Source of the DNA: Sideroxydans sp.
Lineage (GTDB): Bacteria; Pseudomonadota; Gammaproteobacteria; Burkholderiales; Gallionellaceae
NCBI GenBank assembly: GCA_028707175.1
Contig: JAQTUV010000005.1
Span: 271,618 to 335,617, forward strand
Length of the DNA: 64,000 nt
Reading direction: 5' to 3'
Position numbers and translations under genes: made by a program
In this document: positions 62,132 to 63,024 of the stretch, piece by piece
How positions within the stretch are numbered: the first letter of the stretch is position 1
How the letters are laid out: each line of letters starts with the position of its first letter
The notes under the pieces: model-generated
Told to the model about the DNA's origin: nothing
The model's input: the letters and a program-made list of their open reading frames with translations, nothing else
Database searches by the model: none

Positions 62132-62198
62132 GCTTAACGTGGAAGTGAGCGGCCTGCACGGCTTTTTGCGCAGGCCCCGCTCGACTGTCGAGTTAGCC
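62132..62198 (-). other. attC recombination site
   Basis: Minus strand GGCTAAC-TCGACA-GTcGAGCGGggCCTGC-gcaaaaagccgt-GCAGGCCGCTCAC-TTCCAC-GTTAAGC: near-perfect folded arms with the unpaired base at the canonical L'' position. Confidence 0.85.
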
Positions 62199-63014
62199 AT
62201 GCGGGTGCACCTTCATTAGCGCGGCCTGCGATGCAGGAATGAGCACCGGCACAGCCATTCCTGCAATTGAGACAAAGATGTCTGCGACATTCCGAATTAC
62301 GTGGGTTCCAAGCCGGTAGCCTCTTCCGGGCCACGCCACGATACCCGGACGGCTGATAACTGCGATTGGTTGGCAGCCGTTCTTGCAAGAGTAAACGGTG
62401 TCATCGCTATCGAGCGTTATTGGTGCCTCGGAGAGGTGTTGCCTAGTCTTGCAGGTGGGGCACTCAGTCTGAAAATTCGCATCTGAGAAGGTCGCTTCAT
62501 TGGGGCCGCATATTCCAGCATTTTTGAACACCTCCTCAGCACGCAAGATGGCATACGCAATGCCGTTCTGAACGTTGAAATTCCGCACTTTCGCCACTAC
62601 AAGCTCGACAACTTCCTCGACAGTCTTCTTCCGGAAGTCAATGTACCCAGTTGTATCGAGTATGCCGTCGATCTGCGCGTCATCCAGACGAAGAGGAAGG
62701 ATGTATTCCCTGTTCTCGGAGAAAGCTCTTGATTGCGCCGCTCGACGTTCGTGATTGGTCCATTGTTTGGCCGCATAACTGTCGGAAACGAGCATCAAGC
62801 AGAACTTGGAATCGTCGCGATAGACCTTCGTGAGGTGGACGTAGAGATCCTTCCCCCATAAATCTGCTTCGACATATTCGTCGTAGAACACATTCAAGCC
62901 CTTCAGTACCAACCCTGATGCAATATCGGCTGCCGCAGGGCGATCTTCGCCAGCAAACGAAATGGCTACGTCGTAGATAGCTGAAATTTTCACCACGGTT
63001 TCTTGCATGGCTAA
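62138..63014 (-). mobile_element. Single integron-type gene cassette carrying the TIR gene
   Basis: Minus-strand 5' core G^TTAGCC (63015-63009) is the exact reverse complement of the inverse core GGCTAAC of its own attC. Confidence 0.85.
62193..63008 (-). CDS. TIR-domain protein with C-terminal CxxC...CxxxC putative zinc finger
   Basis: 'YDVAISFAGEDRPAAADIASGLVLKGLNVFYDEYVEADLWGKDL', 'LMLVSDSYAAKQWTNHERRAA'; C-term 'ECPTCKTRQHL...VYSCKNGCQPIAVI'. Confidence 0.85.
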   Translation of the reverse strand: MQETVVKISAIYDVAISFAGEDRPAAADIASGLVLKGLNVFYDEYVEADLWGKDLYVHLTKVYRDDSKFCLMLVSDSYAAKQWTNHERRAAQSRAFSENREYILPLRLDDAQIDGILDTTGYIDFRKKTVEEVVELVVAKVRNFNVQNGIAYAILRAEEVFKNAGICGPNEATFSDANFQTECPTCKTRQHLSEAPITLDSDDTVYSCKNGCQPIAVISRPGIVAWPGRGYRLGTHVIRNVADIFVSIAGMAVPVLIPASQAALMKVHPHG

Positions 63015-63024
63015 CAGTTATTTG

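What the first reader, a model, noticed from the sequence alone, without database searches (positions are those of the whole stretch)
62132..63015. Second lone integron cassette, opposite strand, carrying a TIR-domain gene whose start and stop lie in the recombination cores
Seen directly on the minus strand: ...ACTG^TTAGCC-ATG begins the TIR gene right after the core. The stop codon TAA lies inside the inverse core GGC-TAA-C of an attC folding as GTcGAGCGGggCCTGC / GCAGGCCGCTCAC and ending in GTTAAGC. GTTAGCC and GGCTAAC are perfect reverse complements, as in a real cassette. The 877-bp cassette is almost pure coding sequence, with no room for its own promoter or Shine-Dalgarno, so its expression must come from the insertion site.
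Basis: partly seen in the sequence, partly recalled or inferred. Interest (0 to 1): 0.9.

Follow-up and report, generated by a model that had tools for sequence, protein, structure and literature searches.

The report
TIR integron cassette at orphan attI
A probable phage-defence gene in an iron-oxidising bacterium is a mobile integron cassette docked not at a random spot but at one of many scattered copies of an integron landing site that have no integrase gene beside them, which suggests that a genome can keep several gene-capture docks instead of one.

Summary
On the minus strand an 877-bp cassette (63014-62138) runs from G^TTAGCC to an attC (62198-62132). An attC covariance model trained without it gives E = 2e-13. 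The ORF's TAA lies inside the R'' core.

"Lone cassette in an arbitrary gap" is not the best reading. The ~125 bp before the crossover (63137-63013) are one copy of a repeated element: 50 copies in 24 of 34 genomes of the genus, six in this genome. In five genomes of several Nitrosomonadales lineages it lies divergently next to one integron-integrase lineage (IntI-B), at 35-41 nt in the four where this was measured. It is therefore that integrase's attI. About 80 of 84 collected copies have no IntI next to them, yet end in ...AATAACTG^TTRRR and are followed by varied cassettes; attC sites lie downstream (37 versus 2 upstream). One orphan copy carries the same cassette (99%) as this genome's real integron, identical from the crossover on. 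The resident integron's own attI also has two orphan copies.

The TIR protein keeps the putative catalytic Glu plus a zinc-ribbon module; defence is inferred. A short attI ORF ending 9 nt before the ATG may supply translation. How the attI copies spread is unknown.

The parts
62138..63014 (-). TIR gene cassette, G^TT crossover to G^TT crossover, 877 bp
   Evidence: sequence; perfect inverse cores 63009-63015 / 62192-62198
62193..63008 (-). TIR-domain ORF, 271 codons (alternative start GTG 62993-62991, 266 codons)
   Evidence: PF13676 E 5.8e-17; homologue starts
62132..62198 (-). attC site of the cassette (last six bases belong to the old attI or next site)
   Evidence: scanner; CM E 2e-13
63013..63137 (-). 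orphan attI-B copy (docking platform), crossover G at 63015
   Evidence: HMM 119.8 bits, E 3.6e-36; genus-wide copies; attI position next to IntI-B
63018..63092 (-). short ORF MNQLLIENMDSTLLPIVQTVGSVK* inside attI-B, stop 9 nt before the TIR ATG (ORF-11-like, inferred)
   Evidence: ORF-11 precedent PMC8876359
63025..63042 (-). hairpin ACAGACC-GTC-GGGTCTGT within attI-B, compensatory changes in other copies
61443..62051 (+). engB (YihA-type GTPase), downstream flank
   Evidence: Pfam MMR_HSR1
63241..63624 (-). dgkA (diacylglycerol kinase), upstream flank
   Evidence: Pfam DAGK_prokar

Best explanation
The feature is a single integron gene cassette (TIR gene plus attC) integrated by attI x attC recombination into an orphan attI: a ~125-bp copy of the attI of an integron-integrase lineage (IntI-B) that this genome does not encode. 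Shown by sequence: the cassette boundaries, the attC, the identity of the upstream element with the attI beside IntI-B genes in other species, its dispersal without intI, and exchange of a cassette between this genome's real integron and another orphan copy. Inferred: an integrase acting in trans (the resident IntI on contig C8, or a former IntI-B) placed the cassette; the orphan attI supplies transcription and, through its short ORF ending 9 nt before the ATG, translation to a cassette with no 5' signals of its own, so the TIR gene occupies an expressed first position. The TIR protein is probably a single-gene NAD-consuming anti-phage or stress effector.
For: attC CM and scanner. The attI copy next to IntI-B is divergent at 35-41 nt: G017 and its named record L174, L187, L188, L171, plus G456 in another family. 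Of 84 copies, only these have an IntI gene in 1.5 kb upstream; three others match only a small unrelated tyrosine recombinase. attC on the cassette strand: 37 downstream versus 2 upstream, none on the opposite strand. Same cassette, 369/373, in the C8 integron and behind the C9 orphan attI, identity starting at the crossover. Single-contig or nearly closed genomes carry orphan copies hundreds of kb from their only intI or with no intI: G044, G598, G576, G642; G004, G023. Same orphan attI at the dinG-yaiI locus in two species with different cassettes. Resident IntI intact, 492.9 bits. TIR catalytic Glu87 and four cysteines invariant.
Against: No recombination or expression was measured. No sigma-70-like promoter found by consensus in 62000-63300. 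The short ORF shows no codon-level conservation, and it is absent or mis-stopped in about a third of copies, including some next to IntI-B. The resident IntI is only ~49% identical to IntI-B, so its use of attI-B is unproven. The C8/C9 shared cassette does not say which integrase moved it, or when.
Confidence: 0.85

Rival explanations
1. attG-type insertion: the cassette was inserted by IntI at a non-attI genomic site that only happens to resemble attI.
For: Insertion of cassettes at non-classical attG sites is experimentally known (Loot 2024, as described in PMC12444791). The other lone cassette of the window (attC 25633-25695) and the C9:574k cluster lack an attI copy, so this route may operate in the same genome.
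Against: The 125 bp before the crossover are homologous (119.8 bits) to the attI beside IntI-B, and dozens of independent copies end at the same crossover.
Confidence: 0.06
2. Relic integrons: each orphan attI marks a former complete integron that lost its intI by deletion; there was no dispersal of attI as such.
For: Orphan attI-A at C17:179k is homologous up to the intI start codon and no further. Loss of intI with retained cassettes is common, e.g. in Xanthomonas (PMC12444791).
Against: No intI remnant in 1.5 kb upstream of nearly all of the copies with flank; up to six copies per genome at unrelated loci; IntI-B itself in only one of 34 genus genomes. The readings are not exclusive: the site would still be an orphan attI today.
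Confidence: 0.3
3. The repeated element is a promoter/leader or regulatory RNA element, or a MITE, that merely precedes cassettes.
For: It contains a covarying hairpin and a short ORF, and REP-like repeats adjoin many copies.
Against: It occupies the attI position next to IntI-B in several genomes, always ends at the recombination core, and matches no Rfam family.
Confidence: 0.05
4. The TIR gene is not a defence gene but serves another NAD- or signalling-related role.
For: No defence system is matched at family level: PADLOC and NCBIfam hits cover the TIR domain only. No phage data.
Against: The catalytic Glu and TIR fold are kept; sequence relatives in the PDB are the bacterial NAD hydrolase TIRs. 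Integrons are known reservoirs of small defence systems (Darracq 2025 and Kieffer 2025, cited in PMC12409362). Patchy distribution, in 1 of 387 class genomes, is typical of such cargo.
Confidence: 0.25

Closest known systems
attI sites of integrons (attI1 with ORF-11/ORF-17; PMC8876359)
   Same: Divergent next to intI, ends in the G^TT core, receives cassettes; short ORF ending at or near the crossover that can lend translation to signal-less cassettes
   Different: About 80 of 84 copies collected have no IntI next to them and lie at unrelated loci, up to six per genome
CALIN / single attC lacking integrase (IntegronFinder 2.0, PMC9024848)
   Same: Cassette with attC but no adjacent integrase
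   Different: CALIN is defined by attC only; here a homologous attI copy is also present on the 5' side
attG insertions (Loot 2024, via PMC12444791)
   Same: Cassettes outside the integron, resident integrase acting in trans
   Different: attG sites are non-homologous consensus sites; this site is a homologous copy of an attI
Delta-attI-type cassettes (PMC12901181)
   Same: attI sequence found away from its canonical position
   Different: Those are short attI fragments replacing an attC at the 3' end of a cassette; here a whole attI lies 5' of the cassette at a separate locus
Bacterial TIR NAD hydrolases (AbTIR, 7uwg/7uxu TIR, BtTIR, TcpB/BtpA)
   Same: TIR fold and putative catalytic Glu
   Different: About half of this protein is a conserved zinc-ribbon/C-terminal module with no convincing match in the PDB sequence search

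Membership tests
integron gene cassette | attC with R''/R' cores, unpaired spacers, L box with extrahelical base | tested here: met
integron gene cassette | 5' core complementary to the R'' of its own attC, as required in the circular form | tested here: met
   GTTAGCC / GGCTAAC
integron gene cassette | excised and integrated by IntI | not testable with these tools
   intact IntI present in the genome
attI site | homologous to the site adjacent to intI, divergent orientation | tested here: met
   (35-41 nt); G456
attI site | adjacent intI gene at this locus | tested here: not met
   none between engB and dgkA; hence 'orphan attI copy', not an integron
attI site | IntI binding and attI x attC recombination | not testable with these tools
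   only natural-exchange evidence
complete integron | intI + attI + cassette at one locus | tested here: not met
   intI lies on contig C8
attG insertion | target not related to attI or attC | tested here: not met
   target is an attI-B homologue
TIR NAD hydrolase | TIR domain with the catalytic Glu | tested here: met
   PF13676; Glu87 invariant
TIR NAD hydrolase | NAD cleavage or cyclic ADP-ribose production | not testable with these tools
   needs an enzyme assay
Thoeris (ThsB/ThsA) | adjacent ThsA effector | tested here: not met
   single-ORF cassette; ThsB profile only E 0.0036
retron / RT-TIR anti-phage protein (NF042941) | reverse transcriptase domain, score over 600 bits | tested here: not met
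   40.3 bits, TIR part only

The most novel reading that the evidence does not exclude
Nitrosomonadales maintain a distributed integron: many integrase-less attI copies scattered through the chromosome serve as independent first-position docking and expression sites, used in trans by one resident IntI, so that several cassettes (defence genes among them) are expressed at once instead of only the first of one array.
Probability: 0.4. Interest if true: 0.85.

Novelty: new variant of a known kind. Interest (0 to 1): 0.68.

Why it matters
An integron is normally taken to have one attI next to its integrase, so only a few cassettes near that promoter are expressed. Homologous attI copies spread without the integrase, each loaded with cassettes, would give a bacterium several docks served in trans. 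They would also explain some integrase-less cassette loci (CALIN, single attC) as loaded orphan attI sites instead of decayed arrays or random insertions. Annotation programs do not look for attI outside class 1 (PMC9024848), so this layout would be overlooked. It is directly testable with existing recombination assays.

Tried and rejected
Leader peptide under coding selection: rejected (codon positions 1/2/3 conserved 0.88/0.90/0.90, frameshifts in 4 of 19); only an ORF-11-like, sequence-indifferent role is left open. Known RNA family: no Rfam match for the element. Sigma-70 promoter by consensus: none. TIR relatives in virus contigs, plasmids and 387 class genomes: no full-length relative, so cassette borders of relatives could not be read in DNA; two metagenomic proteins (P0002, P0005) read through TLAMQ / LLAGQ as if the same core preceded them, which is inference only. 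Clean empty-site comparison: G042 has engB and dgkA touching, G019 and G001 carry other genes in the gap, so the exact entry event is not resolved. A small tyrosine-recombinase element beside three platforms has its own inverted repeats and sits in either orientation, so it was judged a separate mobile element and not the attI integrase. Papers on orphan attI: none found in the open library.

Full report
WHAT IS THERE. On the minus strand the order is dgkA, ~100 bp of intergenic sequence, a 125-bp element (63137-63013), the crossover G^TTAGCC at 63015/63014, a 271-codon ORF (63008-62193), an attC (62198-62132) and engB on the opposite strand. GTTAGCC and GGCTAAC are exact reverse complements and the ORF's TAA is inside GGC-TAA-C. 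A structural attC scanner returns two sites in the whole 64 kb, this one and 25633-25695(+); shuffles expect 0.18 at the loosest setting and gave none in 60 at this stem length. A covariance model from 24 other attC sites (structure R box, open spacer, L box with extrahelical base) hits only those two sites, E 2e-13 and 7e-14. The cassette is real. Two refinements: the ATG abuts the core and is not in it, and most close homologues start at codon 6 (MK.SAIYDV), which is GTG here, so the start is uncertain by 15 nt.

THE GENOME. A complete integron is on another contig (IntI C8:330086-331027, 492.9 bits) with an attC array. The attC model finds about 29 candidate sites in roughly nine clusters in the genome, the weakest near E 1.

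THE INSERTION SITE. The DNA just before the TIR cassette is repeated across the genus. Fetched copies align over ~125 bp and nearly all end in ...AATAACTG^TTRRR, followed each time by a different gene. A named scan places the element in Nitrosomonadales-type betaproteobacteria: Sideroxydans, Sideroxyarcus, Gallionella, Ferrigenium, Nitrotoga, Methylophilus, Thiobacillus, Sulfuriferula (47 of 53 records confirmed by HMM; a Chloroflexi-labelled record is probably mis-binned, since it is 99% identical to a Nitrotoga record over 2 kb). In G017 the element lies divergently next to an integron integrase about 48% identical to the common one. The same arrangement is seen in Sideroxydans lithotrophicus (L174, the same IntI), Ferrigenium bremense (L187), Nitrotoga M5 (L188) and L171, with the integrase start 35-41 nt away, and in G456 of another family. 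The element is therefore the attI of this lineage (IntI-B). Of 84 distinct copies collected, nearly all others have no integron integrase or remnant in 1.5 kb upstream. With a dedicated model the genus has 50 copies in 24 of 34 genomes, six in this genome, while IntI-B occurs in one of the 34; a sample of the order gives 22 of 300 genomes. Single-contig or nearly closed genomes show that this is not an assembly effect: G044, G598, G576 and G642 have their intI hundreds of kb from the copies, G004 and G023 have no intI.

CASSETTES AT THE COPIES. Over 59 distinct copies the strict scanner finds 37 attC sites downstream on the cassette strand, 2 upstream, none on the other strand; 20 of the 59 have at least one, the rest having none that passes this strict test within the DNA held. 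In this genome the C9 copy carries a ~330-bp cassette that is 99% identical to one in the C8 integron array, similarity starting at the crossover. G000 and G024 have the element at the same dinG-yaiI locus (outer flanks 92-94%) with unrelated cassettes, as expected of turnover at a docking site. The resident integron's own attI (attI-A) also has two copies without intI (C17 about 179.5k and C8 about 290.5k) besides the canonical ones next to intI in related genomes. So two attI families show the same behaviour.

EXPRESSION (INFERRED). The TIR gene has no room for a promoter or Shine-Dalgarno. The attI copy encodes a 24-codon ORF (63092-63018) whose stop is 9 nt before the ATG; 37 of 55 copies have such an ORF stopping near the crossover. 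It shows no codon-level conservation, which fits the attI1 precedent ORF-11, where the peptide sequence hardly matters (PMC8876359), but does not prove it. A hairpin in the element has compensatory changes. No consensus promoter was found, so the promoter is unknown.

THE TIR PROTEIN. PF13676, 1931 homologues in metagenomes and scattered genera but only one in 387 genomes of the class. Glu87 and C183, C186, C208, C212 are invariant in 21 homologues; sequence relatives in the PDB are AbTIR and other bacterial TIRs, and Foldseek gives TcpB/BtpA and SPARTA TIR domains (model pLDDT 78.6). It is not Thoeris or RT-TIR. An NAD-consuming defence effector is the best guess; integrons are known to bank small defence systems (cited in PMC12409362).

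WHAT STAYS OPEN. How attI copies spread. The neighbourhood comparison shows different upstream genes and REP-like repeats beside many copies but no clean empty site. Loss of intI from former integrons remains a rival, not exclusive with orphan function. No recombination or transcription data exist for these sites.

Noticed in passing
window 24993-25695 (+): The other lone cassette: core GTTAGGC at 24993, 205-aa ORF, attC 25633-25695 (CM E 7e-14). No attI copy upstream; it abuts the 3' end of a 283-aa ORF, so it may be a true attG-type insertion.
   Followed up: partly
L242:2331-2465 and L240:2960-2830 (own genome C17 and C8): Two orphan copies of the resident integron's own attI (attI-A), each followed by cassettes; the C17 copy encodes MNQSRIDTSKVPFTAFFGVSTLR whose TAG stop is supplied by the core, as in ORF-11 of attI1.
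   Followed up: partly
L102 (own genome C10), L164, L189: A ~830-bp IS-like element with a ~204-aa tyrosine recombinase and 26-bp inverted repeats (TGGCACGGAGCACTCATAGCC...) sits beside attI-B copies in either orientation; a GTGCCA motif lies about 50 nt upstream of many copies.
   Followed up: partly
engB-dgkA interval in relatives (L118, L013, L119): Variable gap: engB and dgkA stop codons touch in G042; a 247-aa methyltransferase-like gene in G001; a 473-aa gene in G019.
   Followed up: partly
L009 (own genome C8:318000-337000): Complete integron whose first recognised attC lies several hundred bp from intI; the space holds a long inverted repeat (GAGCGAAACGAAGCTCAC...GTGAGCTTCGTTTCGCGC) of unknown role.
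   Followed up: no
window 40528-40705 (+): Tandem glycine riboswitch (Rfam RF00504, two aptamers).
   Followed up: no
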